The notes beneath the pieces are model-generated. The model did not search any database. It had not been told where the DNA came from and worked only from the letters and a program-made list of their open reading frames with translations. Positions 5,881-62,681 of a stretch of 64,000 nt of DNA are shown here, one piece after another; within the stretch, counting starts at the first letter, position 1, and every line of letters starts with the position of its first letter. A program made the position numbers and the translations under genes. Origin of the DNA: Mucidula mucida (lineage: Eukaryota; Basidiomycota; Agaricomycetes; Agaricales; Physalacriaceae); NCBI GenBank assembly GCA_015501055.1, contig JADNYV010000107.1, positions 58,566 to 122,565 on the forward strand, in the 5' to 3' direction.

Positions 5881-7160
5881 GGCAGTGGTGTCACCGGCTT
5901 TACTGTAGGTCTTCGTCAATGTCTTTTGCCTCCAATAACCTAATAATCCCATCAGACCGCCTGGGCACTTTTAGACGCCGGCTACGATGTAACCATCATT
6001 GCGGAACAATGGGCCGACCCCAAGAACTGCATCACTTCGCAAATTGCTGGCGCTTTGTGGGAATTCCCACCAGCAGTTTGTGGAAAACACACCGATGTGA
6101 CTGGCTTTTCCGATACATTGGTTGCATTCTTACCTTTTGTTACAGGTCATCTCTCTTCACAATTCTAAGCGATGGTGCATGACTGCATACCGCGTCTTTG
6201 ACAAGCTGCAAGAGATCATGCCCAAAGCGATTACCTTGACCATGGTGTCCAGATGCGCATCGCCAACTTCTTCTTCGACCAAACAATGGAGAACATGCCT
6301 GACCGGGAACAACTCAACAAGTATGAAGAGATCGTTGCTCAGAGCAATGTAAGTATCCAACATTTCGTAGACGACGGTGACTCTCACTCTTCTCATAGAT
6401 CAAAGGAGTCCGACGTGATGCCAACATTGTACATGAACACAAAGTCAATCAAAAGGCTGGCGTTGTCAACGCTTACCAGCACCTCGCACCAGTCATTGAT
6501 ACCGACGCTTACATGCATTGGCTGCAATTTGTGCTGCCTGTAAAGGCGCAGTTATGGAGACGCGCCGCATCAACGGTGATCTACTTGACCAAGAGGAAAC
6601 ATTGCTTGCGGCGTACGGCGCTGCCGCGATCGTTAATGCTACTGGCTTGGCCGTTGCTGGAGATGCATCCATCTACCCACTTTGAGGCGCTCTTATCCGA
6701 GTTGTCAATGATAGCAGCAAGTTTCCCAAAGTCACCGAGGCGCTTGCTGTCACGCACAATGACAAGACGAAGACATCATATTCATTGTCCCCCGCAATGA
6801 CGCTCATCCTTGGTGGCAAGTCAGATCTACATACATATTTCCTTGGGCATGTCCCAAACACATAAATACAAACTCGACCTCACACTGAACAGCCCCAAAA
6901 TCATATGCATGCAACAACAAGTTTGTACCTGGCCTTGAGCATGCCGAGTATGACCCCGACACACCTTTGAGGTAAGGGCTCCGCCCATTCCGCGCGTTGG
7001 GTGTGCACTACGTCTACGGTCAGACGGGTCAATGAGCCGCATCATGCCAGACAAGGTGGTGCCGGTTTCTCCCTTATGCATTGGAGTTGATTCAGGAGCT
7101 AGAGGATGATCTTCCTGCTACAAACATGTCGCTCAGAATGTGTAGAGTAGTGGCCCAGTT
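5881..7160 (+). pseudogene. DAO-A: D-amino-acid-oxidase-like pseudogene, 5' truncated
   Basis: Homologous to DAO-D from the glycine loop onwards: SGVTGFT, an intron, the segment around GALWEFPPAVCGKHTD, then VISLHNSKRW. Exon 1 upstream of the loop is missing because the Chromo-3 LTR sits at 5880/5881. Several one-base losses break the frame, for example at CATGCCCAAAGCG near 6220 and after GGTGGCAAG near 6820. An 11-bp loss near 6910 (GCATGCAACAAC, where DAO-D has an extra GCCAGCGCTGC) is shared with DAO-F, so the gene was already broken when the arms duplicated. Confidence 0.88.
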
Positions 7161-7588
7161 CTAAAATTCAACGAACTAAATTATTTCTATTTATTCCATC
7201 TCGCTGTTAGATTTCCTTGCATGGGCCACGGGCATAAGAGGGCATACTAAGGACTCGGTGTTAGTAGCTCCAGTGGTGTTTTGCTGAGGCACGTTGATTC
7301 ATGGAACTTGAGCCTACACGCCGCTGATAGCAGAATGTCAGGTACTTACTGTCTCACTCGCAACAGAAAAGAGCTGAAGCCATTCATGACATTTGATAAG
7401 CATGATATGATGTTGGGCGAAGCAGCATTTGGTCAAGGATATATTGGGTGCGTGTGTTTGTTTGCCGTTTGTCTAAATCGTCAGTTCTTGTGTCACGGGA
7501 GCGCACTTGGGTTTTTTGGCTGGATGAATTTGACATAATGGGTACATACTAGTAAGCGCTACGATTCAAGGCTAGGTTTACCCCTATA
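7161..7588. other. Duplicated 3' flank of DAO-A, no gene seen
   Basis: AT-rich non-coding DNA that matches the reverse complement of 60824-61240. Open frames in it are not conserved between the two copies. Confidence 0.6.
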
Positions 7589-9251
7589 CAGTCATGTACC
7601 CATCAACGGGACAGCCAATTAAAGATTGTGCCCGGAACGTATCATACAATGTTTGGAACGGGGATGGGTTGATTAGTATATAGACTACAGTTACTCTACT
7701 TGATTCTACGAAGAATTATTTGCATTCCAACATCTATTGAAGCTGGTAAGAAATAAAGTACTGAAATCAGCCTTATCGGGAAGGGACCACTCAACAGGAC
7801 AGTGTAACATCACACTGATATGCCTTATGCGGGTGCGCGGCAACATCGGATCTACTCTGATCCATCAGAATTGAGCTCGGGTCCTTCTTCATCTTGATCA
7901 TCTTCCATCTTGTCGTCGTCGTTGTTCTCACCGCCATCTGGAGTCGACATACTGCCAGATGCAGCCGCTGCCTCAGCCCGCCTTTTGGGCCTTAGCTGCC
8001 CTTTCTCCAAGTTACCCAACTTCGGCTTATTCCATTGTGACCGCTTCTTCTCCTTTTTAGCCCGCTCAGACTCCGTCTTCCACGCTGTCAGAGCAACCTT
8101 GTGGCGAGCACGCTGCTCATTGTTGCATTCCACATGTGCTGCATCTTCCTTCTTCCAGTCAGCCAGCTCCGTCGCGTACTTCACTCCATCTTGAGCATGG
8201 ATTTCCTTCTCCTGCTCCTTAGCCTGCCGTTCATTATGGTGGTTCTTGGCAGCTACCATAAAGGCGTCACCAGTAAAAAGCTTGGGTAGTCCATCTGCGT
8301 TGAGACGCCCCGAGCCCTTTGCTTTCTTCTTCTTCCGTTCCTCGTCCTTCTGGAGCTGGGTCTGACTTTGGCCAACATAGGTATTGCCATGACCATTCCC
8401 GTCTGAACCTTTACTAACCGTTGCTTAAGGACACGTTCGTTCTCTTGCGAGTCAACAAGGGCATCATGCAAATCACGCTCATGCCAGGTTCTCGGCTCCA
8501 TATCAAGGACCTCTGCAAACCGGTGCTTCATTCGAGGTGGTGAGATCGGAAAGGGATCGCAATGGGGAGGTGTCATGTCTGAGGTGATGTAGTCAGCTGT
8601 AAGGAATGCATATGTCGACGAGGATGACATTGGGTAAGGGTGGCAAGCAGATTTTGTCGTTGTATTTTCTTTGTCTGCCTGCTCTGCTCCATAGGCTTTG
8701 ATAGCCTGGAGCATCCATTTCTCCTTGGTAGTAGCATAGTTCTGGTTTTTTCGTGAGTCGGATTGAGCACGGCAACCATGGTAGCTTCACAGCAACGTCG
8801 CGATGAGGAAGATGCTAATTAGCAACAGACCGCGACCGCGCGCGCGTCATAGGTCCGTCGCGCTGTCTCCTCTGGGTCGTTCTCCTTTGGGTCAGTGTGA
8901 CATGTTTTTGCAGATGGCTTTTAGATATGTTCGATAACCATTCCTTGCTACTCAAATGATCTCATGTAGGGTTCAGTTGATGAAGCTATAGCATACCCTG
9001 GAAATGATAGCTTTTTTTGACAAAACCGATGCTCGCAAGGAGTCAGGATTCCCCATCTGTCAAAATCTCACTCATTTTCATAGAGTACATAGCTCGTGTT
9101 CGTTGCGACTGCCTCGGAGTACAAGTAATATAATACTATATACCATTCATTGTTAGATGTTCAGAACTCCGAGGCCAATTTGAGCCTGTAGCGTGGTTCC
9201 GAGCCGTTTGTCCCGTTGACGGGGCTTGTCCCGTTGAGTGGTACATGACTG
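7589..9251 (-). mobile_element. pogo-like (Tc1/mariner superfamily) element, 1663 bp
   Basis: Inverted termini begin CAGTCATGTACC and continue into imperfect TCAACGGGACA. They are flanked by TA on both sides (7587-7588 and 9252-9253). The opposite arm has the unoccupied site with one TA at 60822-60823, which defines the insertion to the base. It encodes the C-terminal part of a transposase on the minus strand and no DDE core, so it is non-autonomous. Because one arm lacks it, it inserted after the inverted duplication or was excised precisely from the right copy. Confidence 0.87.
7852..8714 (-). pseudogene. pogo-type transposase C-terminal region
   Basis: The first open segment (8714 to about 8390) includes SPPRMKHRFAEVLDMEPRTW and a coiled-coil-like stretch ENERVLKQRLVKVQ. 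After a frame change near 8390 the reading continues QTQLQKDEERKKKKAKGSG, then GDAFMVAAKN, then a charged helix and KRSQWNKPKLGNLEKGQLRP with an acidic tail ending at 7852. The K/E-rich helix followed by W-x-KP-x-LG and a basic then acidic tail is what I know from C-termini of basidiomycete DDE1/pogo transposases. The N-terminal helix-turn-helix and catalytic domain are absent. Confidence 0.65.
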
Positions 9252-9390
9252 TACCTCTATCTCATTTATATAACTTTACTCGCTTTCAAATTCCTTCATG
9301 TTCAACCCAGCCAAATCCATGTCAGCTACATAAATACAGATTGAAGAAATTATAAGTGTATTGATACAACAGAGCTCTTGGCTACAAATT

Positions 9391-10800
9391 CTACTCCTCA
9401 GCAACCACAACCACACTCTTCGCCACATTCTCTCCCATCTGAATCTTCCTAAGCGCCTCGCCCGCATGCTCCAGCCCGACCGTAATCTCCTCCCTATACT
9501 TGAACTCCCCGCTCGCAAGCTTTGCTGGGATAACACGATAAAACTCTTCTTGCCACTTGGGCATGAGGTCTCGAACGAGGAATCCGTTGATGGTGAGGCT
9601 CCTTGCGAAGAGCTGCCAGATGTTCTGATAAAGTAAAGTGGGCTAGTGGTCAAAGAAATCAGACAGAGTAGCATACCTTGAAATGCTGCCCCCGCGGATC
9701 GTTATAAGCCGATATCGCCCCACAGGCGATGATACGCCCGTGGTCCTTCATTGACTCGATAGCAGCATCAAGGATCGCGCCGCCTACGTTGTCCCAGTAC
9801 CTATCATCATCATCAAAAAAAGTGAAAGGATGAAATGCATGCATACAGACACATCAAGTGGGCCCTCCCTCTTCAACACCGAAAGTGTATCCTCCGTCTT
9901 ATAATTAAACACCACATCCGCGCCGAGCTCTTTCATAAACGCCACCTTTTCGTCTGTGCCCGCGGACGCTATTACTTTGAGGCCGTCCATTTTCGCGAGC
10001 TGTATGACGATGCTGCGGGCGGGGGAACTGAGCACAAATAAGGAGTGGGAGTAGGAAGCTTACGATCCAACGGCCCCAGCCCCAGTGCTCACAAAGATGG
10101 TATCGCCCTTCTTCGCGTGCGCGTATTCCTTGTAGCCAAAGTACGCCGTCTCGCCGGGCATCCCTGCTACGCCGACGTAGACTGACCACGGGAGGGTCGG
10201 AGCATCGCTCTTGGCGATGACGCGCATGTCGACGCGCGAGGGGTCGCTAACGACGCTGTATTCTTGGAAGTCTGAAAAAACGGAAGTTGCTCAGGTCCCG
10301 CTGTGATGGATGGATGGATGGGTGGACGCACTGAATATGCCCGTGATGTGGTCGCCAACTTTGATATCCGCGTTTTCGGAGCGCACGACGCGTGCAACGC
10401 CATAGTTGTACAGGCTACCATTGGTTAGTTGGATAGGGGCGCATGCGTCAAGGACTCACGGCTCGCCGATGAGGAATGCGGGCTAGCGATTAGGCGTAAG
10501 CAACTCACGGATATCAAGAAACCAAAAAAAAAAACAGACGCACAAGGTAGGACTTCACGCTGGCGTCGCGCATATTCCCGCGGAGGTACGGGTCGATGGA
10601 CAAGACGAGCGTCTTGATCAGGATACCGCCGTTCAGCGGCACGGTATCAAGATCGATGGTCTGGCTCGTGTCGTAGACCGTCGTGCGCCCGGGGATTGGA
10701 TACCCTGTATCATAGATATAAGATGCTGTTGGAGGAGATTAAAGCGCCTACCCGTAGGGATTTCGTTAAAGGTCATGACCGCGTTCCGAATGGGTGCCAT
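9391..10800 (-). CDS. MDR-1: medium-chain dehydrogenase/reductase, PTGR/alkenal-reductase type
   Basis: Exons on the minus strand: 10752-10800, 10544-10704, 10460-10482, 10332-10414, 10064-10271, 9851-10027, 9677-9800, 9391-9624. The joined length is 1059 nt, giving 352 aa with all phases consistent. It opens [18 protein letters not shown] GroES-like segment [13 protein letters not shown] is followed by [14 protein letters not shown], the Rossmann turn [25 protein letters not shown] and [14 protein letters not shown]. No zinc ligands of classical ADHs are visible, so it fits the zinc-free NADPH-dependent enone/alkenal reductases, which reduce activated C=C bonds. Exon 3 is only 23 bp. This is the only intact MDR of three in the window. 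Exact substrate is unknown. Confidence 0.88.
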
Positions 10801-10832
10801 TGGGTGTTCACGTTGTATGGAGGAGCGGGCTG

Positions 10833-10839
10833 TTTTATA
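10833..10839 (-). promoter_or_regulatory. TATA box of MDR-1
   Basis: On the minus strand GATATAAAA lies about 35-40 bp upstream of the ATG at 10800. The same box is kept at 59234-59240 in the inverted copy. Confidence 0.6.
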
Positions 10840-11387
10840 TCGGTGTGCGTGAGTAAGGATTAAGGATTTAGCGCTTAGCAATCGAGTGTGTGTGTGTGGA
10901 GTCTGGACGTGAGTCAATGATTAGGCGTGTGCTAGCAATCTCGGCCGAAGCCCGAGGCGCGACAGCTCGCGACAGGTCATTTGTTGGCAGGCGCGTGCGT
11001 CCTTGAAGTGCGTGCGCCCGCATTGGAATTTGGGGGGCGGCTGCAATAGGTACGCGAAAAGCAAAGACTCTTTCAGTTACGAGAGTCGAATGGTCACAGG
11101 GGACTAATATAAGCAAGTATAGGAAGAATGTCGTAGTGGTCGTGGGAAGGAAGGAGCACAATGCTGACAGAGATATGACTTGCCGCACCCGCTGACCGCG
11201 AAGGTTTTTTCCCACACCTGCCGAGCACACTTCGTTGGTTTTCTACTCTGTACAAGTCGATATCCACAATCTCGACCTCAAATGGCATAGAACGTTGATA
11301 AAAGTGATGTGTCAAGCAAGACACCGTAATGCTTCTGCCATATGTACATGTCCGAGTCTCATCGTCGGTTCCCAGTGGACATCAATC

Positions 11388-11657
11388 ATGTCTACTGTGT
11401 CGATGATTTCTACCCAACCTACCGCTCAACGCCATCCCGTTGCCCTTTTAGAAGCCATGTTGATCGAGTCCCAGCTCGCTCAAGGTGTGTCGTTTAGTAA
11501 GACGAACTTCGGTGCATACTATAATACTATGTACATATTCACCTTTTTCGAAGCCTCGCATTACCACTCTACACCTGCCTTCAAAGTTCAAGCTGACCAC
11601 ACTGCAAAACTTCTAGCGTTGCGTCGGCTGTATAACGGAGCCGAAACTGTCCAATGA
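11388..11657 (+). CDS. Hypothetical 89-aa protein, identical in both arms
   Basis: ATG at 11388 opens MSTVSMISTQPTAQRHP; the frame ends GAETVQ and a stop at 11655-11657. The middle segment NFGAYYNTMYIFTFFEASHY is aromatic-rich. The copy at 58431-58700 gives the same 89 residues, while the flanks just upstream differ by small indels. No family is recognised and no signal peptide is clear. It could also be an exon of a larger gene, since GT...AG pairs exist inside. Identity may only reflect recent duplication. Confidence 0.4.
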   Translation: MSTVSMISTQPTAQRHPVALLEAMLIESQLAQGVSFSKTNFGAYYNTMYIFTFFEASHYHSTPAFKVQADHTAKLLALRRLYNGAETVQ

Positions 11658-12031
11658 AATCATAAATATTTGCTCTTCATCGTAATTGTATTAACACAGC
11701 ATCTCGCGGTCATCCGACCAAAAGTTTCTTACACGTTCTTTCATGCGACCTTTCTTGCCCACTGACCGCATATCCAGGAGTCGGAATACTTCGTCGTCCG
11801 AGTACTAGTCTGTGCTATTCGAGGCATTCGCCTCACGACAAGCAGCAGTCACTAGTGTCTCCAACTCATTACACGAATCAAGCTCAAGGCGTCCTTCAAA
11901 CGCGTGCTTCATGTCGTTCGCTTCCGCTCAAGCGCCACACTCATTGAAATCACCAAGTCCGTACTCAGATTCATATATATGTGCCACACTACCACGCTTT
12001 CAAAACTCAAGTCCAGTTTCCAACGAACGTT

Positions 12032-12600
12032 ATGGCCGTCCCTACTCCGAGTCATCTTCCAGCCCCAATGACAGACTCCATCCCCGTCCCAGTCTACTCC
12101 CATCTCCTCCACGGCGCCAAGGTCGTAGTCGCATGGCTTGTAGGCCTCTCTGTCCTCGTCGTCACCGCCTCTGCCTTCACCGTCCTCGGCTACGCCTTAT
12201 TCTCCACATCTACCATCCCCCCGGCCACGCCCTCTCCGTCTTCTACGCGTCCCTCATCGGCGGGAGCATCCTCGTCCCCCCAGTCTGCATCGCATGCGAC
12301 GCGGCATTCCAATCCATCTGCCCGTCCGGGTACCGCGATCTGGACATGGCCTCCATTCTCTGGATGGAATACGTCCCCCGTGCGCTCATCATACCCGTGT
12401 TTGTGGGGGGCAGCGCTTTAGGATTGAAGATCTTGGGTCTGAGCTCGGCGTTTGATGCGGAGCGGCTTGTGGATAGGGGACATTTGGTGGCGGCGAGTGC
12501 GCTTGGGGGATTCATTTTTCAGGTGATCTATGAAGCTTTGAGAGCTGGCGTTGTGATTACGACGCTTATTCGGGAACGTGGCGAGAGGAATTCGATTTGA
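12032..12600 (+). pseudogene. T1: small multi-pass membrane protein, frameshifted
   Basis: The first ATG with homology to the intact copy T4 is at 12032 (MAVPTPSHLPAPMTDSIPVP). A hydrophobic helix around VVAWLVGLSVLVVTASAFTV is followed by LGYALFSTSTIPP. There the C-run near 12218-12224 has six C where T4 has seven, and the frame is lost. The downstream frame continues LSVFYASLIGGSILVPP to a stop at 12598-12600. A TATATAT box lies at 11971-11980. It is a recent one-base pseudogene, or a homopolymer sequencing error. Confidence 0.75.
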
Positions 12601-12659
12601 TGATTACCTTGTAGTTCCGTCTAACTTATACGAAGTAACCTTCCAACTAGAAAGACTTC

Positions 12660-12815
12660 GCGTGCAGCGTAGTTGGTTCTAAGAGTGCCCAGACAGTCTC
12701 AGGGCTTATGGGTTAGTCGTTTTACAAAGGCAATTAAGGCATTGAGTCTTGACCACAAACCATGAAGCCGGTAAGACCACTGGCAACCAAGATACGCTTC
12801 TTCGGCGCGTCTGGG
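12660..12815 (-). pseudogene. DAO exon 1/2 scrap
   Basis: Minus strand reads NPDAPKKRILVASGLTGF (DAO-B has NPDAPKKRILVVGGGVTGF), then an intron-like gap, then TVWALLEP matching the start of DAO exon 2. Only about 150 bp of a DAO gene is here. The inverted counterpart lies at 57266-57420. Confidence 0.7.
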
Positions 12816-12998
12816 TTGATCACTATGGCACAGCAGGACAATGGTCTCGGCCGATATGTAAGGACCAAGAAGAATTGGTTGGCAGTTTTTTATCAGCCTA
12901 CCCAACACACACTACGGAACAGCGAAAAGTTTTGTAATGGATCCTGGGATGTCCTTATGTATAAGAAAATCGGGAGTGTGCTCAATTACTGGTATGAC

Positions 12999-14105
12999 TC
13001 AGAATACAATGTAGCTGCGAGATTCTATGTACGTCTTCATACTCACGGACTTGAGCCTCGGAAGACGCAGTAAATCACTCTCCGCGTCCTTCCATGCCAC
13101 CATTGAATGCTGCATCTCCGACGCCGCGCTCGCGTCCGCATAGCGGAAAATGATCGCCAGATGTTCTAAGCTGACGGCTGCCTCCTGGGTCAGGTGGCTG
13201 AGCCACCATCTCGTCAAGGACGAAGTGAAGCCAGGGAGGGACAGGTGCAATGACCTGATTCTTTGCAAGGGAAAGACGGGAATCTCCAGCGCTGTATCGT
13301 CTATCAGTAAATCAGTCGCAGGACATGGGAATGGTCGCTTACTCTGTAAATCGCCAATATTATACTCTGGTCGGCCAAGCGTTAAGGATATGAGATTCGG
13401 AAGTTTGGGGATGAGTTCTGAGATGATGAAGAGGGTTTCGGCGGAATAGCTTAGGAAAATTAGCCTGCGCAAGTGCTTCAACCATCCGCTGGCAACGGTA
13501 TTGGACAGGAAAACACCTAGGGGCGATGATACCGTGAGCATATGTATTTCGGTGACGTGAAAACTCCCGGGGTCGAGTGAGGGAGGCTTCCCCTTTATAT
13601 GCAATCGGGCATCAACGTGAAGCGACGAGACCGAAGGGAAGTAGGAAAGAATGTGAAACAAATACTGAGGGTTTGAGAGGAAGGCTCCCCACAACTTGAG
13701 CATCCTGACTCTGGGAGATGATACGATGGGAAGAAGATCTGGGCTGTTTGCGACCGTGACGCTATGTATGCCTTCGAACTCAATTTTATCCACATTAATA
13801 AGTGCATGGATCAGGCGCCCGAATGAGTCGTCTTCTTGAACGGGTCGGCCTGGGAGAGGGTTACGAAGGGTGATGTGTTCAGCAACAATGCGAAGTCGGC
13901 GAACGTAATTCAGGATGTGGGGCGACATTTCGAGAAGAGGTATATATCTCGAAGGACGGTTCCTTGGTGACAGCTCCAAGTCGTGGAATAAGAGCGCCTG
14001 CGAGCGAGCACGGAGACACTGCGATGTGCATGACAGTGCCATAAGGGATGGGTGGTCGTCGAACAGCCATTCGACAATTTCATCGAGTAGTTCTTGGGGG
14101 AACAT
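12999..14105 (-). CDS. FB-1: F-box/LRR-like protein
   Basis: Exons 13343-14105 and 12999-13291 with a 51-bp intron give 351 aa. The intron is divisible by three and stop-free, so it also reads through. The start is the ATG at 14105 (MFPQELLDEIVEWLFDDHPS), an F-box-like opening that would contact Skp1 in SCF ubiquitin ligases. Leu-rich segments follow, such as MLKLWGAFLSNPQYLFHILSYFP and SLTLGRPE, resembling degenerate LRRs. FB-2 and FB-4 have an upstream exon; here its equivalent carries an in-frame TGA and the link to MFPQ is shifted by one base, so FB-1 may be N-terminally shortened. It is divergent to DAO-B. FB-3 is nearly identical. Confidence 0.78.
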   Translation of the reverse strand: MFPQELLDEIVEWLFDDHPSLMALSCTSQCLRARSQALLFHDLELSPRNRPSRYIPLLEMSPHILNYVRRLRIVAEHITLRNPLPGRPVQEDDSFGRLIHALINVDKIEFEGIHSVTVANSPDLLPIVSSPRVRMLKLWGAFLSNPQYLFHILSYFPSVSSLHVDARLHIKGKPPSLDPGSFHVTEIHMLTVSSPLGVFLSNTVASGWLKHLRRLIFLSYSAETLFIISELIPKLPNLISLTLGRPEYNIGDLQSKRPFPCPATDLLIDDTALEIPVFPLQRIRSLHLSLPGFTSSLTRWWLSHLTQEAAVSLEHLAIIFRYADASAASEMQHSMVAWKDAESDLLRLPRLKSVSMKTYIESRSYIVF

Positions 14106-15131
14106 GACGGTCAAATTTTGAAGTTGGAGGATAAGTATGCGCCTGAGGAGGGTTTCAAAGACGCGGAAGCTGATTGGGAGTCGTCGTATTCGATAGTAGA
14201 TGGGTTCTAGTAGTAGTACACATGTTCAATGCATGTTTGTCCGCGCCACAGGAGAGCTTACCTTGATCAATGTAAAATATAAGCTTGAGGTAATTCTGAG
14301 TAAGATCTACGCATGAATAGGCGCGAGGATGTGCAGGGATGAAAATCTATTAGAGACCACGGAGGGAAGAGGTCAACCCGATTGCCGGCGGATGTAGAAA
14401 CCGATATCTCCGTGTTCGAGTTGCTACCCGACTCTCATGATGTCTGCCCGTCTTGCCATACAGAGCGTACTTCTCTTGCATCCGTCGCCGTGGACTTGAA
14501 ATTGGACGTTTGAAATCATGTTCTCTTCAACTAGTAAGGCACAGTGGGCGCTGCTAAGTGTGCTGTGATTTTCTTGATGAAAAACTTCTCTAACTCACCG
14601 GTTAGAAACAACACGCAAGGCTTGTCAGAAACTTGATCTGTCACGGATCTCTGCTCGGACATATCTTATCGTCTTGTCCTCGGTAAGATCTTTCATCAAT
14701 TCCGAGATTGTCAACTCAGATTCAGCTCAGCTCGCACTCCGGCAACTTGATAAAACCCACAGTCTCGCATGTCCGTCGACTGCTGGTCCGCTGTACGATA
14801 GCTCTACGCGTTATCCAATTCCTATCGCCCAGCTCCATAATCAGGTTCTAATTACCTGCGAAGTACTGAACGAGCACCTTGAAAGTCTTTGCCATAACCT
14901 CTCATCCGAGGCGGTCATTCACGTCCATCATCACCCGGGGTCTGCACGTCCTCCGCGCTGAACCCTACATGGACCTGTAGCTCGTCAGGGTGCCGCGGAT
15001 GAACACGACGTGGTCGTTCTCCGAGCACTTTCCAAAGTCGCGGTCGCGGGATTGGTATTTAACATGAACGTGTTCAGCATGTTGGACCATCAGCATCAGT
15101 CCCACTCAGACTCAGCTTCTCTAACTCAACA
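14106..15131. promoter_or_regulatory. Shared divergent promoter region, FB-1/DAO-B
   Basis: About 1 kb between two divergent starts. It includes the former F-box 5' exon and intron near 14200-14320. A block from about 14437 onward matches 27447 onward almost base for base. The DAO TATA-like TATTTAA is at 15056-15062, 70 bp before the DAO-B ATG, and recurs before DAO-C and DAO-D. The stretch contains an open 95-codon frame (14674-14961), probably chance. Confidence 0.6.
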
Positions 15132-16739: not shown

Positions 16740-16950
16740 CTCACCTGGTGCAAGTACTCCTTAACACTTCCCTCCAATGGGCGAGCTGCTATGGTTGTTT
16801 GTTCGTAAACTTCAAAGCAGAAGGGTTCAATGGATTCCCCGTAAATGATAACAGTCTAATACAACTGAAGTAGAGCAACTCAATGTACACATAGCCAAGC
16901 AGCGATCCAGAAAAGTGCGAAAACCTGAACTAAACATTTGACTTTAAATT

Positions 16951-53167: not shown

Positions 53168-53483
53168 AATTTAAAGTCAAATGTTTAGTTCAGGTTTTCG
53201 CACTTTTCTGGATCGCTGCTTGGCTATGTGTACATTTAGTTGCTCTACTTCAGTTGTATTAGACTGTTATCATTTCCGGGGAATCCATTGAAGCCTTCTG
53301 CTTTAAAGTTTACGAACAAACAACCATAGCAGCTCGCCCATTAGAGGGAAGTGTTAAGGAGTACTTCCACCAGGTGAGATAATTCACGCGCGCTAAATGA
53401 ACAGAAGTAAATATGACAGCTCGTAGTGAGAGATGAAATAAATACCAATGATTTAGTCGACTAGCATCCGTTGAATCTAAAAT

Positions 53484-54986
53484 TCAGCCTCCGCACTGAT
53501 GTCGTCTGCTGAGCGACATTTTCGTAGCGGGAAGATCATCTTTTACCTCCTGAATCAACTCCAACACATCGCTAGCACAACCGAAGGACAAGGAGAGACC
53601 AGCGCCACCTTGTCCATAAGAATGGACGATGCGGCTTGTTGACCCGTCTGACCGTGAGCATAACTCACGCTCAACGCGGACATTGGAGCCCCGCAATGGG
53701 CGGAGACCTTGCACCAAGGATGCGTCGGGTCGTACTCGGCGTGCTCAAGGCCAGGTACAAATTTGTTGGAGCGCGGGCGCATGCGTATGATTTCGGGGCT
53801 GTCCAGTGTGAGGTCTAATTCGTGTTTATGTGGTTGAGCCAAACCTGAAGGTATTCGAATGGACATCATGTCCAAAGACATTTACGGGTGTGACTTACCA
53901 CCAAGGATGAGCGTGTTGTCGTTGCGGGGGACGATGAACACGGTGTCTTCGTCTTCTCCTCGAGTGTCATCATGAGTGACAGCATGCGCCTCGGTGACTT
54001 TGGGGAATTTGCTGCCATCGTTGACAACCCGGATAAGAGCGCCGCGAAGTGGGTAGACGGAGGCATCTCCTGCAAGTTCGAGACCAGCCAAGCCAGTGGC
54101 ATTGACGATTGCGTCAGCACCGTACTCGGCGAGCAATTCTTCCTCTTGGTCAAGTAGATCACCGTTGATGCGGTGCGTCTCCATGACCGTTCCTTTAGAG
54201 ACGAGCACGAATCGCAGCCAGTGCATATACGCATAGGAATCGATGACGGGGGCGAGATGTTGAGAGGCGTCGACAACACCGGCCTTTTGATTGACTTCGT
54301 GTGCATTGACGATGTTGGCATCGCGTCTGGCGCCCTTGATCTAGCATAGTTATCAGCATCGCTGCTTTTACAATAGTAGTTAAGAAAACATACATCCTTC
54401 TGCGCCATAATCTCCTTGAACTTGTCCAGCTGGCCACGTTCAGGCATATTTTCCATTTTTTGGTCAAAAAAGAAGTTGGCCATGCGCATCTGCACACCAT
54501 GATCGAGATAGTCATCGCGAGTCATGATCTCCTGAAGTTTGTCGAAAGCGCGGTAGGCGGTCAAACACCAGCGCTTCGAGTTGTGCAATGAGATGACCTG
54601 CGATCCAAGGTAAGCACACGATGATCAAGTTATGAAGACAACCATGTACATCGGCGTGTTTGCCGCAAACAGCTGGCGGGAATTCCCATAAAGCGCCGGT
54701 AATTTGAGATGTGATTCGGTTTTTGGGATCCGCCCAACGCTTAGCGATGAGGGTGACATCGTAGCCGGCATCGAGAAGCGCCCAAGCTGTCTGAAGGGAC
54801 TTTCAGAACATCGAACTCAAAAGATACTAACAAACACCTACAGTGAAACCAGTAACACCGCCGCCAACAACCAAGATGCGCTTCTTCGGCGCTTCTGGGT
54901 TAGGCGTAATGGGCTGGCCTTGCTGAAGGATGAGTTCGTCACGGAGGCGGGTCAAGAAAAAGTCAGGAGATGAGACAATAGACCGT
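53484..54986 (-). pseudogene. DAO-E: D-amino-acid-oxidase-like, start lost and frameshifted
   Basis: Exon positions match DAO-B: 54842-54986, 54650-54790, 54394-54597, 53899-54340, 53484-53844. The start reads ACGGTCT where functional copies have ATGTCT. In exon 5 one C is missing at the AEYDP position, giving AEYDPTHPW and an early stop, while the correct frame resumes as QGLRPLRGSNVRVERE to RRHQCGG and a TGA. The residues of exons 2-4 are otherwise well kept, so loss is recent. Confidence 0.87.
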
Positions 54987-55983
54987 CTGAGTGTATGAGT
55001 TGGACTGATGCTGATGCTCCAACATGCTGAACACGTTCATGTTATATATCAATCCCGCGACCGCGACTTTGCAAAGTGCTCGGAGAACGGCCGTATTCAT
55101 CCGCGGCACCCTGACGAGTTGCAGGTCCTTGTAGGGTTCAGCGCGGAGGACGTGCAGACCCCGGGTGATGACAGATGCGAGCGACTGCCTCGGATGAGAG
55201 GTGATGGCAAAGACTTTGAAGGTGCTCGTTCAATACTTCGGATGTCAGTGAAACCTGCATACGGGATTCTTCCAAAGGCGTCGAGTAACGCGCAAAATCA
55301 TCACACAGCAGAAGAGCAGTTAACCGACATGCAACGCTGTGAGTTTTATCAAGTTGCCGGAGTGCGAGCTGAGCTGAATCTGAGTTCTATGATCTGAGAA
55401 TTGAGGAAAGATCTCACCGAGGACAAGACGATGAGAGATTTCCGAGCGGAGATCCGTCGCAGATCAAGTCTCTGAAAGGCCGAGCTTGTTGTTTCCAAAT
55501 GGTAGTTTTTCATTATGAAAATGTCAGCACAGATACCAAGGCCCACCGTGTCTTGTTGGTTGCAAGACCAAGATTTCAAACGTCCAATTTCAAGTCCACG
55601 GCGGCAGATGCAAGAAAAGTACGCTCCGTATGGCAAGACGGGCAGACATCATGAGAGTCGGGTAGCAACTCGAACACGGAGATATCGGTTTCTACATCCG
55701 CCGGCAATCGGGTTGACCTCTTCCCTCCGTGGTCTCTAATAGATTTTCATCCCTGCACATCCTCGCGCCTATTCATGCGTAGATCTTACTCAGAATTACC
55801 TCAAGCTTATATTTTACATTGATCAAGGTAAGCTCTCCTGTGGCGCGGACAAACATGCATTGAACATGTGTACTACTACTAGAACCCATCTACTATCGAA
55901 TACGACGACTCCCAATCAGCTTCCGCGTCTTTGAAACCCTCCTCAGGCGCATACTTATCCTCCAACTTCAAAATTTGACCGTC
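54987..55983. promoter_or_regulatory. Divergent spacer FB-3/DAO-E
   Basis: Inverted counterpart of 14106-15131 but clearly more different from it than the rest of the arm is, especially 55300-55530. This fits replacement of the left version by conversion with the DAO-C region. Confidence 0.55.
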
Positions 55984-57090
55984 ATGTTCCCCCAAGAACT
56001 ACTCGATGAAATTGTCGAATGGCTGTTCGACGACCACCCATCCCTTATGGCACTGTCATGCACATCGCAGTGTCTCCGTGCTCGCTCGCAGGCGCTCTTA
56101 TTCCACGACTTGGAGCTGTCACCAAGGAACCGTCCTTCGAGATATATACCTCTTCTCGAAATGTCGCCCCACATCCTGAATTACGTTCGCCGACTTCGCA
56201 TTGTTGCTGAACACATCACCCTTCGTAACCCTCTCCCAGGCCGACCCGTTCAAGAAGACGACTCATTCGGGCGCCTGATCCATGCACTTATTAATGTGGA
56301 TAAAATTGAGTTCGAAGGCATACATAGCGTCACGGTCGCAAACAGCCCAGATCTTCTTCCCATCGTATCATCTCCCAGAGTCAGGATGCTCAAGTTGTGG
56401 GGAGCCTTCCTCTCAAACCCTCAGTATTTGTTTCACATTCTTTCCTACTTCCCTTCGGTCTCGTCGCTTCACGTTGATGCCCGATTGCATATAAAGGGGA
56501 AGCCTCCCTCACTCGACCCCGGGAGTTTTCACGTCACCGAAATACATATGCTCACGGTATCATCGCCCCTAGGTGTTTTCCTGTCCAATACCGTTGCCAG
56601 CGGATGGTTGAAGCACTTGCGCAGGCTAATTTTCCTAAGCTATTCCGCCGAAACCCTCTTCATCATCTCAGAACTCATCCCCAAACTTCCGAATCTCATA
56701 TCCTTAACGCTTGGCCGACCAGAGTATAATATTGGCGATTTACAGAGTAAGCGACCATTCCCATGTCCTGCGACTGATTTACTGATAGACGATACAGCGC
56801 TGGAGATTCCCGTCTTTCCCTTGCAAAGAATCAGGTCATTGCACCTGTCCCTCCCTGGCTTCACTTCGTCCTTGACGAGATGGTGGCTCAGCCACCTGAC
56901 CCAGGAGGCAGCCGTCAGCTTAGAACATCTGGCGATCATTTTCCACTATGCGGACGCGAGCGCGGCGTCGGAGATGCAGCATTCAATGGTGGCATGGAAG
57001 GACGCGGAGAGTGATTTACTGCGTCTTCCGAGGCTCAAGTCCGTGAGTATGAAGACGTACATAGAATCTCGCAGCTTCATTATATTCTGA
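55984..57090 (+). CDS. FB-3: F-box/LRR-like protein
   Basis: Exons 55984-56746 and 56798-57090 give 351 aa, nearly identical to FB-1; visible changes are FHYADA for FRYADA and a C-terminal RSFIIF for RSYIVF. The upstream exon (ATG near 55774, MRRSYSELPQAYILH) ends in an in-frame TGA, as in FB-1. Divergent to DAO-E. Confidence 0.78.
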   Translation: MFPQELLDEIVEWLFDDHPSLMALSCTSQCLRARSQALLFHDLELSPRNRPSRYIPLLEMSPHILNYVRRLRIVAEHITLRNPLPGRPVQEDDSFGRLIHALINVDKIEFEGIHSVTVANSPDLLPIVSSPRVRMLKLWGAFLSNPQYLFHILSYFPSVSSLHVDARLHIKGKPPSLDPGSFHVTEIHMLTVSSPLGVFLSNTVASGWLKHLRRLIFLSYSAETLFIISELIPKLPNLISLTLGRPEYNIGDLQSKRPFPCPATDLLIDDTALEIPVFPLQRIRSLHLSLPGFTSSLTRWWLSHLTQEAAVSLEHLAIIFHYADASAASEMQHSMVAWKDAESDLLRLPRLKSVSMKTYIESRSFIIF

Positions 57091-57265
57091 GTCATACCAG
57101 CAATTGAGCACACTCCCGATTTTCTTATACATAAGGACATCCCAGGATCCACTACAAAACTTTTCGCTGTTCCGTAGTGTGTGTTGGGTAGGCTGATAAA
57201 AAACTGCCAACCAATTCTTCTTGGTCCTTACATATCGGCCGAGACCATTGTCCTGCTGCAGTGTA

Positions 57266-57420
57266 GTGATCAACCCAGACGCGCCGACGAAGCGTATCTT
57301 GGTTGCCAGTGGTCTTACCGGCTTCATGCTTTGTGGTCAATGCCTTAATTGCCTTTGTAAAACGACTAACCCATAAGCCCTGAGACTGTCTGGGCACTCG
57401 TAGAACCAACTACGCTGCAC
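57266..57420 (+). pseudogene. DAO exon 1/2 scrap, inverted counterpart
   Basis: Reads NPDAPTKRILVASGLTGF, then a gap, then TVWALVEP. Same fragment as 12660-12815. Confidence 0.7.
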
Positions 57421-57483
57421 GCGAAGTCTTTGTAGTTGGAAGGTTACATCGTATAAGTTAGACGGAACTACAAGGTAATAACA

Positions 57484-58056
57484 TCATCGAATCGAATTCC
57501 TCTCGCCACGTTCCCGAATAAGCGTCGTAATCACAACGCCAGCTCTCAAAGCTTCATAGATCACCTGAAAAATGAATCCCCCAAGCGCACTCGCCGCCAC
57601 CAAATGTCCCCTATCCACAAGCCGCTCCTCATCAAACACCGAGCTCAGACCCAAGATCTTCAATCCCAAAGCGCTGCCCCCCACAAACACGGGTATGATG
57701 AGCGCACGGGGGACGTATTCCATCCAGAGAATGGAGGCCATGTCCAGATCGCGGTACCCGGACGGGCAGATGGATTGGAATGCCGCGTCGCATGCGATGT
57801 AGACTGGGGGGACGAGGATGCTCCCGCCGATGAGGGACGCGTAGAAGACGGAGAGGGCGTGGCCGGGGGGGATGGTAGATGTGGAGAATAAGGCGTAGCC
57901 GAGGACGGTGAAGGCAGAGGCGGTGATGACGAGGACAGAGAGGCCTACAAGCCATGCGACTACGACCTTGACGCCGTGGAGGAGATGGGAGTAGAATGGG
58001 ACGGGGATGGAGTCTGTCATTGGGGCTGGAAGAGGACTAGGAGTAGGGATGGCCAT
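57484..58056 (-). CDS. T4: small multi-pass membrane protein, intact
   Basis: 190 aa from ATG 58056 (MAIPTPSPLPAPMTDSIPVP). Helices near residues 35-60 (VVAWLVGLSVLVITASAFTVLGYALF), 70-90 (LSVFYASLIGGSILVPPVYIAC), 115-135 (ALIIPVFVGGSALGLKILG) and 150-180 (GHLVAASALGGFIFQVIYEAL). Seven C in the run that has six in T1 keep this frame open. A longer reading to 58107 would need a GTG start, which is unlikely in a fungus. TATATAT lies about 60 bp upstream. Confidence 0.75.
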   Translation of the reverse strand: MAIPTPSPLPAPMTDSIPVPFYSHLLHGVKVVVAWLVGLSVLVITASAFTVLGYALFSTSTIPPGHALSVFYASLIGGSILVPPVYIACDAAFQSICPSGYRDLDMASILWMEYVPRALIIPVFVGGSALGLKILGLSSVFDEERLVDRGHLVAASALGGFIFQVIYEALRAGVVITTLIRERGERNSIR

Positions 58057-58430
58057 AACGTTCGTTGTAAACTGGACTTGAGTTTTGAAAGCGTGGTAGT
58101 GTGGCACATATATATGAATCTGAGTACGGACTTGGTGATTTCAAGCAGTGTGGCGCTTGAGCGGAAGCGAACGACATGAAGCACGCGTTTGAAGGACGCC
58201 TTGAGCTTGATTCGTGTAATGAGTTGGAGACACTAGTGACTGCTGCTTGTCGTGAGGCGAATGCCTCGAATAGCACAGACTAGTACTCGGACGACGAAGT
58301 ATTCCGATTCCTGGATATGCGGTCAGTGGGCAAGAAAGGTCGCATGAAAGAACGTGTAAGAAACTTTTGGTCGGATGACCGCGAGATGCTGTGTTAATAC
58401 AATTACGATGAAGAGCAAATATTTATGATT

Positions 58431-58700
58431 TCATTGGACAGTTTCGGCTCCGTTATACAGCCGACGCAACGCTAGAAGTTTTGCAGTGTGGTCAGCTTGA
58501 ACTTTGAAGGCAGGTGTAGAGTGGTAATGCGAGGCTTCGAAAAAGGTGAATATGTACATAGTATTATAGTATGCACCGAAGTTCGTCTTACTAAACGACA
58601 CACCTTGAGCGAGCTGGGACTCGATCAACATGGCTTCTAAAAGGGCAACGGGATGGCGTTGAGCGGTAGGTTGGGTAGAAATCATCGACACAGTAGACAT
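58431..58700 (-). CDS. Hypothetical 89-aa protein, right-arm copy
   Basis: Same 89 residues as 11388-11657, on the opposite strand. Unrecognised. Confidence 0.4.
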   Translation of the reverse strand: MSTVSMISTQPTAQRHPVALLEAMLIESQLAQGVSFSKTNFGAYYNTMYIFTFFEASHYHSTPAFKVQADHTAKLLALRRLYNGAETVQ

Positions 58701-59233
58701 AGATGATGTCCACTGGGAACCGACAATGAGACATGTACATATGGCAGAAGCATTTACGGTGTCTTGACACATCACTTTTATCAGCGTTCTATGCCATTTG
58801 AGGTCGAGATCGTGGATATCGACTTGTACAGATTAGAAAACCAACGAAGCGTGCTCGGCAGGTGTGGGAAAAAACCTTCGCGGTCAGCGGGTGCGGCAAG
58901 TCATATCTCTGTCAGCATTGTGCTCGTTCCTTCCCACGACCACTGCGACATTCTTCCTATACTTGCTTATATCAGTCCCCTGTGACCATTCGACTCTCGT
59001 AACTGCAAGAGACAAGAGAGTCTTTGCTTTTCGCCGTACCTATTGCAGCGCCCCCAAATTCCAATGCGGGCGCACGCACTTGACGCACGCGCCTGCCAAC
59101 AAATGGCTCTGTCGCGCCTCGGGCTTCGGTCGAGATTGCTAGCACACGCCTAATCATTGATCACGTCCAGACTCCACACACACACCCTCGATTGCTAAGC
59201 GCTAAATCCTTAATCCTTACTCACGCCCACCGA

Positions 59234-59240
59234 TATAAAA
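59234..59240 (+). promoter_or_regulatory. TATA box of MDR-3
   Basis: TATAAAA 45 bp upstream of the ATG at 59285, conserved with MDR-1. Confidence 0.6.
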
Positions 59241-59284
59241 CAGCCCGCTCCTCCATACAACGTGAACACCCAATAACACCCTCA

Positions 59285-60687
59285 ATGGCACCCATTCGGA
59301 ACGCGGTCGTAACCTTTAACGAGATCCCGACGGGTAGGCGCTTTAATCTCCTCCAACAGCACCTTATATCTATGATACAGGGTATCCAATCCCCGGGCGC
59401 ACGACGGTCTACGACACGAGCCAGACCATCGATCTTGATACCGTGCCGCTGAACGGCGGTATCCTGATCAAGACGCTCGTCTTGTCCATCGACCCGTACC
59501 TCCGCGGGAATATGCGCGATGCCAGCGTCAAGTCTTACCTTGTGCGTCTGTTTTTTTTTTGGTTTCTTATATCCGTGAGTTGCTTACGCATAATCGCTAG
59601 CCCGCATTCCTCATCGGCGAGCCGTGAGTCCTTGACGCATGCGCCCCTATCCAACTAACCAACGGTAGCCTGTACAACTATGGCGTTGCACGCGTCGTGC
59701 GCTCCGAAAACGCGGATATCAAAGTTGGCGACCATGTCTCGGGCATATTCAGTGCGTCCATCCATCCATCCATCCATCACAGCGGGACCTGAGCAACTTT
59801 TGTTTTTCAGACTTCCAAGAATACAGCGTCGTTAGCGACCCCTCGCGCGTCGACATGCGCGTCATCGCCAAGAGCGATGCTCCGACCCTCCCGTGGTCAG
59901 TGTACGTCGGCGTAGCAGGGATGCCCGGCGAGACGGCGTACTTTGGCTACAAGGAATACGCGCACGCAAAAAAGGGCGATACGATCTTTGTGAGTACTGG
60001 GGCTGGCGCCGTTGGATCGTAAGCTTCCTACTCTCACTCCTTATTTCTGCTCAGATCCCCCGCCCGCAGCATCGTCATACAGCTCGCAAAAATGGACGGC
60101 CTCAAAGTAATCGCGTCCGCGGGCACAGACGAAAAGGTGGCGTTTATGAAAGAGCTCGGCGCGGATGTGGTGTTTAATTATAAGACGGAGGATACGCTTG
60201 GGGTGTTGAAGAGGGAGGGCCCGCTTGACGTGTATGTCCCTTTCCATTTATTTCGGACGATTAATGATGATGATGGCGGCAGGTACTGGGACAACGTAGG
60301 TGGCGCGATCCTTGATGCTGCTATCGAGTCAATGAAGGACCACGGGCGTATCATTGCGTGCGGGGCGATATCGGCTTATAACGATCCGGGGGCAGCATTT
60401 CAAGGTATGCTACTCTGTCTGATTTCTTTGACCACTAGCTCACTTTACTTTATCAGAACCTCTGGCAGCTCTTCGCAAGGAGCCTCACCATTAACGGATT
60501 CCTCGTTCGGGACCTCATGCCCAAGTGGCAAGAAGAGTTTTATCGTGTTATCCCAGCAAAGCTTGCGAGCGGAGAGTTCAAGTATAGGGAGGAGATTACG
60601 GTCGGGCTGGAGCATGCGGGCGAGGTGCTTAGGAAGATTCAGATGGGAGAGAATGTGGCAAAGAGTGTGGTTGTGGTTGCTGAATAG
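59285..60687 (+). pseudogene. MDR-3: MDR reductase with 2-bp deletion
   Basis: Exons 59285-59333, 59381-59541, 59601-59623, 59669-59751, 59811-60018, 60055-60231, 60283-60404, 60457-60687. All match MDR-1 except exon 7, which is 122 instead of 124 bp: after GATCCG it lacks CG before GGGGCAGCATTTCAAG. That shifts the frame before the last exon (IWQLFARSL in MDR-1). Everything upstream, including GAGAVGS and the 23-bp exon 3, is open. Recent pseudogene, or a GC-rich sequencing error. Confidence 0.8.
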
Positions 60688-61239
60688 TAGAATTTGTAGC
60701 CAAGAACTCTGTTGTATCAATACACTTATAATTTCTTCAATCTGTATCTATCTGACATGATTGCTGGGCTGAACATACTTGGAATTTGAAAGTGAGTAAA
60801 GTTATATAAATGAGATAGAGGTATAGGCGGGTAAGCCTAGCCTTGAATCGTAGCGCTTACTACTATGTACCATTATGTCAAATGCATCCAGCAAAAAACC
60901 CATGTGCGCTTCCATGACACAAGGCGACCTGACGTTTTCAACAAAACGGCAAACAAACACACTACACTTTCGGCGCACCCAAAATATCCTTGACCAAACG
61001 CTGCTTCACAACATCGTGCGCGTCAACATTAATGCTTATCAAACATTGCGAATAGCTCAGCTTTTCTCCGTGCGAGTGTTCCCCGCTAGACATGACATAC
61101 TGTTATCACGGCTTGTAGGCTCAATTCCATGAGATCAACGTGCCTCAGCAAACCACTACGATCCTCATATCCACGGCCCTGCAAGCAACGTTAACAGCTC
61201 GTATTGAGAGATGGAATAATGTAGTTCGTTGAATCTAAA
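60688..61239. other. Duplicated flank with empty pogo site
   Basis: Counterpart of 7161-7588 plus 9252-9390. The TA at 60822-60823 in GAGGTATAGG is the unoccupied target of the pogo-like element. No gene. Confidence 0.6.
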
Positions 61240-62681
61240 ACTGGGCCACTGCTCTACGTCTCTCCGTAGCAGGGAGATCCATCGTCTAGCTCCCTACTCA
61301 ATAACGACAACTCCAAACACCGTCCGTAGCCAAGGGAGAAACCGCGCACCTTGTCGTAAGAATGGACGATGCGGCTCATCGACCATCTGACCGTGGGCGT
61401 AACTCACGCTCACGCGGACATTGAGCCCCGGAATGGGCGGGAACCCTTGCACCAAAGGTGCGTCGGGGTCATACTCGGCATGCTCAAGGCCAGGTGCAAA
61501 GGTGTTGCATGCGTATTGATTTCCGGACTGTCCAGCGTGAGGTCGAGTTCGTATTTTGTGGTTGGGCCAAGCCTATAGAAGGTATACGAATGAACAACAT
61601 GCCCAAGGAAATATGTTAGATCTGACTTACCAAAGGATGAGCGTTGTTGTCATTGCGGGGGAACGATGAATACAATGTCTTCGTCTTGTCATCGTGAGTG
61701 ACAGCAAGCGCCTCGGTGACTTTGGGGAACTTGCTGCCATCGTTGACGACTCGGATAAGAGCGCCTCGAAGTGGGTAGACGGATGCGTCCCAGCAACGGC
61801 CAGGCCAGTAGCGTTGACGATCGCGTCAGCGCCGTACTCCGCAGCAGTGTTTCCTCTTGGTCAAGTAGATCGCCGTTGATGCGGCGCGTCTCCATGACTG
61901 CGCCTTTGCAGACAAGAACGAATCGTAGCCAATGCATGTAAGCGTCGGTATCGATGACTGGGCGAGATGCTGGTAAGCGTCGACAACGCCAGCCTTTTGA
62001 TTGACTTTGTGTTCAGTGACGATGTTGGCATCCGTCGGACTCCTTTGATCTGGAAGAGTTAGGTCCCGTCGTCGAAAAGGATACCATTCTTACAACGTTC
62101 TGAGCAACAATTTCTTCATACTTGTCAAGCTGTCCCCGGTCAGGCATGTTCTCCATCTTTTGGTCGAAGAAGAAGTTGGCCATGCGCATCTGGACACCGT
62201 GGTCAAGGTAATCGCTTCGGGGCATGATCGCTTGAAGCTTGTCGAAGACGCGGTATGCAGTCATGCACCATCGCTTAGAATTGTGAAGAGAGATGACCTG
62301 TAACGAAAGGTAAGAATGCGACCAATGTATCGGAAAAGCCAGTCACATCGGTGTGTTTTCCACAAACTGCTGGTGGGAATTCCCACAAAGCGCCAGCAAT
62401 TTGCGAAGTGATGCGGTTCTTGGGGTCGGCCCATCGTTCGGCAATGACAGTCACATCGTAGCCGGCATCTAAGAAGGCCCAGGCAGTCTAAAGGCATTAT
62501 TAGAAGCTTGGAGGCAAGAGACACCAATGAACGCCTACAGTAAAGCCGGTGACACCACCCCAACGATCAAAATACGCTTCCTCGGAACATTCGGGTCTGC
62601 TTGGGGAGGCTGGCCTTCTTGAAGGACAAGCTCGTCGCCGAGGCGAGTCAAGAAGAAGTCGGGAGATGAGGCGATAGACAT
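61240..62681 (-). pseudogene. DAO-F: D-amino-acid-oxidase-like pseudogene
   Basis: ATG at 62679-62681, exon 1 to 62539. One base is missing in the glycine loop (GTTGGGGTGG near 62560) so the frame is lost at once. More one-base losses lie near 62030 (exon 4 start), 61960, 61845 and 61790-61800. It shares the 11-bp loss near 61510 with DAO-A. Exon 1 resembles DAO-D (QPPQADPNVPRKRILIV). Not functional. Confidence 0.87.

What the first reader, a model, noticed from the sequence alone, without database searches (positions are those of the whole stretch)
5881..62561. Two ~10-kb arms in inverted orientation carry the same eight-part gene block
5881-17369 and 52754-62561 are collinear reverse complements through genes and intergenic DNA. 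They are separated by about 35 kb. Both ends show sharp breaks: an LTR on the left, and a mid-gene break at 17369. Such an arrangement favours hairpin, inversion and conversion events and may explain the amplified DAO/F-box genes.
Basis: seen in the sequence. Interest (0 to 1): 0.75.

Follow-up and report, generated by a model that had tools for sequence, protein, structure and literature searches.

The report
Patchwork inverted gene block in mushroom
A mushroom chromosome piece carries the same 8-kb block of genes twice, in opposite directions, and parts of the copies appear to have been overwritten from each other or from a neighbouring gene copy; this is an ordinary kind of gene-family churning, with one unusual detail: a dead enzyme gene that seems to have received a new, intact front half.

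Summary
The inverted pair is real but smaller and messier than stated. Core arms are 9249-17369 and 52755-60826 (8.1 kb, 94% identical, 35.4 kb apart). The outer part (5885-7589/60821-62558) is only ~80% alike and arm 1 is interrupted there by a TA-flanked TIR element, 7589-9251. The genome is, by inference, Mucidula mucida. Arm 2 is the older site: its inner edge lies inside an intact gene. In arm 1 that gene is cut and joined bluntly into an ADH-gene intron. Each inner junction recurs on its own other contig (C572: arm 2; C842: arm 1), so the arms are most likely paralogs, not misjoined alleles. They are mosaics: 1,317 bp around the F-box-like gene is identical between arms; the next ~1.5 kb of arm 1 (upstream DNA to mid exon 4 of DAO) is instead identical to the direct-oriented DAO copy at 27-29 kb. 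Four of four other copies of this arm lack the DAO start codon; arm 1 has an open 465-codon chimeric frame. Best reading: inverted segmental duplication plus ectopic gene conversion on top of an older DAO/F-box-like amplification. Conversion is supported, hairpins untested, simple inversion not supported. Known kind of event; raw reads are needed.

The parts
5393..5880 (-). truncated or solo LTR that abuts the left end of the DAO relic
   Evidence: LTR family hits; terminal letters
5881..7146 (+). DAO relic (outer part of arm 1), many frameshifts and stops
7589..9251 (.). TIR element with TA on both sides, inserted in arm 1; empty site in arm 2 and C842
   Evidence: related stretches elsewhere
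9249..17369 (+). core arm 1 as aligned by blastn (homology beyond the TIR element starts at about 9252)
9276..10930 (-). zinc-type alcohol dehydrogenase-like gene, arm 1 (ends approximate)
   Evidence: nucleotide homology with the arm 2 copy; PF00107 in the arm 2 copy
11948..12600 (+). membrane-protein-like ORF (by eye), split over two frames in arm 1
   Evidence: compared with 57484-58140
12999..14225 (-). F-box-like/LRR-like protein gene, arm 1, open 408 codons (match to annotated protein 13002-14105)
13145..14461 (.). 1,317-bp stretch identical between arm 1, arm 2 and C549: homogenised tract
14440..15986 (.). conversion tract in arm 1 of the type of the DAO copy at 27-29 kb (14440-15888 identical to that copy, 14440-15986 identical to C875)
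15132..16739 (+). arm 1 DAO gene: chimeric, open for 465 codons in five exons
16951..17369 (-). 3' part of the junction gene, cut in arm 1
17369..17370 (.). blunt arm 1 inner junction into an ADH intron; same letters in C842
17370..18572 (-). truncated ADH gene beyond the junction
28142..29654 (+). intact DAO gene (433 codons), of the conversion donor type
36153..37657 (+). intact DAO gene, second direct copy
51695..53167 (+). intact junction gene (nucleotidyltransferase-like by eye) that crosses the inner edge of arm 2
52755..60826 (-). core arm 2
53480..54985 (-). DAO copy of arm 2: start codon lost and frame broken
55864..57090 (+). F-box-like gene, arm 2, open 408 codons
57484..58140 (-). 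membrane-protein-like ORF (by eye), arm 2, 218 codons
   Evidence: no Pfam family
59120..60760 (+). ADH-like gene, arm 2 (ends approximate)
60821..62558 (-). outer part of arm 2, about 80% like 5885-7589; includes a broken DAO copy

Best explanation
This is an inverted segmental duplication inside an older, repeatedly duplicated DAO/F-box-like gene cluster of a wood-decay mushroom (Mucidula mucida, inferred). Arm 2 sits at the ancestral place. A copy of it was joined (blunt junction, so end-joining or template-switch repair; inferred) into an ADH-gene intron about 35 kb away in inverted orientation, giving arm 1. Arm 1 also carries a TIR element and abuts an LTR. Since then ectopic gene conversion has rewritten patches: the F-box-like gene was homogenised between the arms (shown as identity; direction not resolved), and the front half of arm 1's DAO gene was overwritten from the direct-oriented DAO copy at 27-29 kb or its C875 counterpart (shown as identity; direction well supported). 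Order, junctions and tracts are shown from the assembled sequence. Repair mechanisms and any functional effect are inferred.
For: Arms and spacer. Full-length junction gene only at C58 arm 2 and C572, truncated at C58 arm 1 and C842, so arm 1 is the derived end. Identical junction letters in window and C842; the arm 2 junction is continuous in C572. Mosaic: of 334 sites where the 27-29 kb copy and arm 2 differ, arm 1 follows arm 2 for the first 46, then the 27-29 kb copy for 187 in a row; 0 of 10,000 shuffles reach that run or so few runs (sites treated as independent). 1,547 identical bases with C875, where the difference rate seen between C58 and C572 in the unique spacer (121 of 7,815 columns) would give 24 differences. 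1,317 identical bases between the arms, flanked by 97.0% and 86.8%. Direction: 4 of 4 other fetched copies of this arm are arm-2-type in the DAO tract.
Against: The DAO tract is seen in one contig only; C842, the other contig with the arm 1 junction, lacks it. Long-read self-correction in a repeat family can mix paralogs (general knowledge), and I had no reads. Over the whole arm C842 is closer to C572 (99.35%) and arm 2 (98.9%) than to window arm 1 (96.6%), so calling it arm 1's partner rests on its junction and its inner 1.4 kb. C549 is a fifth arm copy that a plain two-haplotype, two-arm model does not place. 37.65-43.5 kb is unbridged by a second contig.
Confidence: 0.78

Rival explanations
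1. Assembly artefact: the window joins two haplotypes or loci, or consensus building in a repeat family created the mosaic tracts.
For: The assembly keeps several near-identical contigs of this region; C58, C572 and C842 all end at the homologue of window 64000, and C549 ends at the homologue of 17294 where C842 begins at 17296, as repeat-limited graph nodes do. Window 60827-64000 shows 33-41 gap events against the other three contigs, against 6-11 among those three, so this contig end looks poorly polished. The last 91 columns of C549 are only 92-95% like every other copy. 37.65-43.5 kb is on C58 only. The genome paper names Falcon among several assemblers for its set (passages).
Against: Each inner junction is reproduced on another contig with its own variants. 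44923-64000 is continuous in C572 (98.1%) and 25951-35556 is matched by C875 in three pieces at over 99%. The arms differ at 4.4% of aligned columns (3.0% and 3.5% outside the two tracts), more than C58 and C572 differ in the spacer (1.5%).
Confidence: 0.12
2. The arms recombined by crossing over, so the spacer is inverted in one haplotype.
For: C842 has the arm 1 inner junction and arm-1-type sequence at 15997-16881 (27 of 29 informative sites), but arm-2-type sequence at 9251-13012 (95 of 103 sites) and an arm-2-type outer flank, as one product of such a crossover would. The stretch between is uninformative because window arm 1 itself carries the tracts there.
Against: The partner product is missing: C572, with the arm 2 inner junction, also keeps the arm-2-type outer flank. 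Long conversion in C842, or a secondarily altered outer flank in window arm 1, explains this without inversion.
Confidence: 0.08
3. No conversion: the arms are one old duplication with uneven divergence by selection.
For: The F-box-like gene is open in both arms.
Against: The identical stretches include introns and intergenic DNA, switch sharply, and in the DAO tract match a different paralog exactly.
Confidence: 0.02

Closest known systems
Inverted segmental duplications / palindromes with arm-to-arm gene conversion (mammalian sex-chromosome palindromes; search listing and abstract starts, otherwise recalled)
   Same: Inverted multi-gene arms, patches of 100% identity attributed to conversion
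   Different: Arms here are only about 95-96% identical overall and 35 kb apart, in a fungal contig, and the best-resolved tract comes from a third, direct-oriented copy
Birth-and-death gene clusters with interlocus gene conversion (general kind; recalled)
   Same: Direct and inverted copies, intact and dead members mixed, chimeric genes
   Different: Nothing fundamental
Rescue of a pseudogene by gene conversion (recalled example: bovine seminal ribonuclease)
   Same: A dead copy acquires the missing front part from an intact paralog
   Different: Here expression and function are untested, and the open frame also depends on a single-base difference unique to the window contig
Hymenopellis radicata homologous cluster (P0001, P0023, P0027, P0144, P0146, all listed with a 72,942-bp contig)
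   Same: Junction-gene, DAO and F-box-like relatives appear to lie together
   Different: Order and orientation not seen, since only protein listings were available

Membership tests
Inverted segmental duplication | Two non-allelic, inverted, multi-gene copies of high identity | tested here: met
   8,157-column inverted alignment at 94.2%; separate partner contigs for both junctions; one spacer stretch unbridged
Large palindrome with converting arms (sex-chromosome type) | Arms over 99% identical (criterion from the abstract of PMC8981503 as listed) around a short spacer (recalled) | tested here: not met
   95.6% of aligned columns, spacer 35.4 kb
Ectopic gene conversion tract | Bounded stretch identical to a paralog inside otherwise different sequence | tested here: met
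   187-site run, 1,449-1,547 identical bases
Ectopic gene conversion tract | Present in raw single-molecule reads | not testable with these tools
   no reads held
DAO (FAD-dependent D-amino-acid oxidase-like) | PF01266 match and similarity to solved D-amino-acid oxidases | tested here: met
   PF01266 61.7 bits vs cut-off 27.9 for the last exons of the 36-37.7 kb copy; 7ct4 D-amino acid oxidase E 7.1e-20 with P0022. Activity not tested
F-box protein | Pfam F-box domain above cut-off | tested here: not met
   no family for the window protein; PF00646 in 2 of 9 members, best E 0.23
F-box protein | F-box/LRR fold | tested here: inconclusive
   model mean pLDDT 62.7; 4 of the 14 Foldseek hits with E<=0.001 are chains of F-box-protein entries (6brp twice, 9kkx, 7z8t), the other 10 other proteins, mostly with LRRs; TM-scores by query at most 0.42 among these 14
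TIR DNA transposon | Terminal inverted repeats and target-site duplication with an empty site | tested here: met
   27-nt ends, TA flanks, empty site in arm 2 and C842; no Pfam domain in its two longest listed ORFs

The most novel reading that the evidence does not exclude
Ectopic gene conversion has re-armed a dead enzyme gene in one haplotype of this mushroom: the four other copies of the arm carry a DAO gene without a start codon, while in window arm 1 the upstream DNA, start codon, exons 1-3 and about half of exon 4 were replaced by those of an intact paralog, leaving an expressed 465-residue chimeric oxidase. An inverted cluster would thus keep recycling pseudogenes into new chimeric oxidases.
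Probability: 0.25. Interest if true: 0.5.

Novelty: new member of a known kind. Interest (0 to 1): 0.33.

Why it matters
It is a well-bounded example in a basidiomycete of how inverted and direct copies in one gene cluster exchange patches, with haplotypes apparently differing in arm content. If the chimeric DAO is expressed, it would be a natural pseudogene rescue by conversion. It also warns that copy numbers and alleles in such clusters cannot be read from a partly collapsed assembly.

Tried and rejected
Considered and dropped: (1) Arms as misjoined alleles: contradicted by separate partners for each junction, except for the unbridged 37.65-43.5 kb. (2) Simple inversion by crossing over between the arms: C572 does not show the partner product. 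(3) C842's near-palindromic first 3.8 kb as a fold-back read artefact: the halves differ at 25 of 1,874 aligned columns, 19 of the 25 from position 1,400 on (mostly the LTR part). That argues against a pure artefact but does not prove a palindrome; left open. (4) STE2 pheromone-receptor hit on 58431-58832 (E 0.0018, 18.1 bits, below the 27.2 cut-off): taken as chance. (5) Naming the junction gene: no Pfam family for the window protein; among 14 relatives DUF7582 matches 2 (best E 0.0063) and DUF6036 nucleotidyltransferase 1 (E 0.061); no solved structure with E below 0.25. The name nucleotidyltransferase-like rests on that weak hit and on a motif recalled by eye. (6) In one search the 36-37.7 kb DAO copy looks broken because exon limits were projected through the alignment; the spliced alignment shows it intact. 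(7) The 3.4-kb inversion between C58 and C849 has no flanking inverted repeat found by blastn. (8) Literature searches listed no paper that I recognised as treating this locus; except for passages of PMC8480192 I saw only listings and abstract starts, and in four of the six searches the list was cut at 15-20 rows.

Full report
What was checked. A self-comparison of the window gives one long inverted pair, 52755-60826 against 17369-9249, 8,157 columns at 94.2%. A multiple alignment of five copies of this arm gives 95.6% over 8,027 ungapped columns for the window pair. Between the two pieces arm 1 holds a TIR element: 27-nt inverted ends (93% complementary), TA on each side, and an uninterrupted site in arm 2 and in contig C842.

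Where it is. The window is C58:58566-122565 of a 59.9-Mb, 1,047-contig genome, and its right end is the end of that contig (122,565 bp). Proteins like those encoded here are listed under Mucidula mucida with a contig of 122,565 bp (P0022, P0142, P0143); I infer that C58 is that contig. The genome paper (PMC8480192; passages seen) lists Oudemansiella mucida CBS 558.79 (JADNYV) and names Illumina, PacBio, Velvet, AllPathsLG and Falcon for its set of genomes; the passages do not say which was used for this one. The window and the loci fetched by then hold no N. That the several near-identical contigs are the two haplotypes of a dikaryon is an assumption; no call gives the ploidy.

Are the arms alleles or a misjoin? 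Contig C572 runs without a break through the unique spacer into arm 2 and on to the homologue of window 64000 (its 2373-21504 on 44923-64000, 98.1%); in the unique spacer it differs at 121 of 7,815 columns, which I take as the allelic level. Contig C842 carries the arm 1 junction with the same letters as the window over the 91 bases printed. Searching the genome with the Hymenopellis relative of the junction gene gives 14 matches: full length at two places, C58 arm 2 and C572; the 3' part at C58 arm 1 and C842; two partial pieces at the end of C549; and eight short pieces of relics. So each arm has its own partner, and the two arms are most simply not alleles of each other. The direct copy at 25951-35556 also has a partner, C875, in three pieces at over 99%, while a second direct copy of window 17370-36279 lies at C58:22991-36485 with partner C849 (97.1% over C58:22342-39999). 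A weak point remains: 37.65-43.5 kb was found on C58 alone (apart from diverged paralogs of parts of it). C549 is a fifth copy of the arm; it runs on past the homologue of 64000 into sequence like 34818-29875, with an insert. C58, C572 and C842 all stop at that same base, and C549 stops at the homologue of 17294, next to where C842 begins (17296), which looks like unresolved repeat nodes of the assembly.

Which arm is older. Arm 2's inner edge (52755) lies in an ORF of 495 codons (51680-53167) that has an 82%-identical relative covering 99% of it in Hymenopellis radicata. In arm 1 the same gene is cut at 17369 and continues, without shared letters at the joint, into an intron of an ADH-like gene that runs on in other copies. 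Arm 1 is therefore the derived end. Its blunt joint fits end-joining or a template switch; that is inference.

Mosaic structure. Windows of 400 columns show arm 1 and arm 2 at 93.8-99.3% up to about 13.2 kb, 100% in three windows at 13.2-14.4 kb, 84-93% at 14.4-16.0 kb and 96-98% to the junction. The exact match spans 13145-14461 (1,317 bp; C549 shares it, C842 differs at 1 position, C572 at 7 and by a 2-base gap) and covers most of the F-box-like gene and its upstream DNA. Then arm 1 changes type: 14440-15888 is identical to the DAO copy at 27-29 kb (1,449 bp) and 14440-15986 to its partner C875 (1,547 bp). Of 334 sites that tell the 27-29 kb copy from arm 2, arm 1 reads 46 arm-2, then 187 of the other type, then, after a mixed stretch, mostly arm-2 again (17 runs in 333 scored sites; 0 of 10,000 shuffles as few; one site fitting neither was set aside; shuffling treats sites as independent). 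At the allelic rate 24 differences would be expected in 1,547 bp. Since four of four other fetched copies of the arm are arm-2-type here, arm 1 is the recipient. C842 is arm-1-type at 15997-16881 (27 of 29 sites) but arm-2-type at 9251-13012 (95 of 103 sites), so it is a mosaic too. A crossover between the arms would invert the spacer, but C572 keeps the arm-2 outer flank, so I prefer conversion.

Genes. Spliced alignment to P0022 of the six DAO copies of the window finds two intact ones (28142-29654 and 36153-37657), a dead relic at 5.9-7.1 kb, a dead copy in arm 2, a dead copy at 61-62.7 kb (near a poorly polished contig end), and an open copy in arm 1. Among 17 aligned copies (the 5.9-7.1 kb relic was not in that alignment), the arm 2 copy and its counterparts in C549, C572 and C842 lack the start codon; the other 13 have it. 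The arm 1 copy has its upstream DNA, start codon, exons 1-3 and about half of exon 4 from the tract, and its frame stays open for 465 codons to a stop at 16737. Its exon 5 shares a one-base loss with the other arm copies and stays in frame owing to one extra base found only in the window contig; that base could be a sequencing error. Whether the gene is expressed is unknown. The F-box-like gene is open for 408 codons in both arms, C549 and C842, and split over two frames in C572. Pfam does not call an F-box at its cut-off; a model of low confidence (pLDDT 62.7) matches LRR proteins, 4 of the best 14 hits being chains of F-box-protein entries, so the name is a lead. ADH and DAO are supported by Pfam and DAO by solved D-amino-acid oxidases.

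Amplification. Of the 15 pairs among the six DAO-bearing copies of the window, 12 are 72.8-85.2% identical and three 93.7-94.2%; the close pairs are those touched by the arms or by shared tracts. The F-box-like protein found 9 relatives: two from Mucidula, six from Hymenopellis and one unnamed (the search needs shared exact words, so distant relatives can be missed). Two of the Hymenopellis ones share a contig length with two DAO and the junction-gene relatives. The cluster therefore looks older than the arms, which explain only the latest copies.

Verdict. Real, ordinary in kind, well resolved in anatomy: an inverted segmental duplication with ectopic conversion inside a birth-and-death cluster. 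The one detail a specialist may want to follow is the chimeric arm 1 DAO.

Noticed in passing
25470-25717 and 31582-31829: A 248-bp repeat at 99.6% identity with inverted ends, once inside an LTR and once beside a membrane-like ORF; absent at the place matching 31.6-31.8 kb in C875, C422 and C58:22991-36485. Looks like a recently moved short element.
   Followed up: partly
C58:22991-36485 (outside the window) vs window 17370-36279: A second, direct-oriented copy of this part of the cluster on the same contig, with its own partner contig C849.
   Followed up: partly
L026 (C58:13963-17313) vs L018 (C849:115937-119304): A 3.4-kb inversion between the two partner contigs, 95.5% identical, without a flanking inverted repeat found by blastn.
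   Followed up: partly
L009 (C842:1-3814): A near-palindrome: arm 1 junction region and LTR, then LTR and junction region in reverse, halves 98.7% identical in aligned columns, followed by a full arm. Could be a genuine tight palindrome in the other haplotype.
   Followed up: partly
C549:184682-188381 and 191624-195323 (L015, L016): A 3.7-kb inverted pair at 99.7% identity inside the insert that separates two cluster pieces.
   Followed up: no
40004-41823 (+) and 48467-50276 (-): Two MFS-transporter-like genes, about 69% alike, in inverted orientation inside the spacer: an older inverted pair nested between the arms. Only part of the first was scanned (MFS_1, 22.2 bits, below the cut-off of 33.4).
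   Followed up: no
18797-19273: ORF that reads by eye like a piece of a non-LTR reverse transcriptase (no Pfam hit; recalled resemblance).
   Followed up: no
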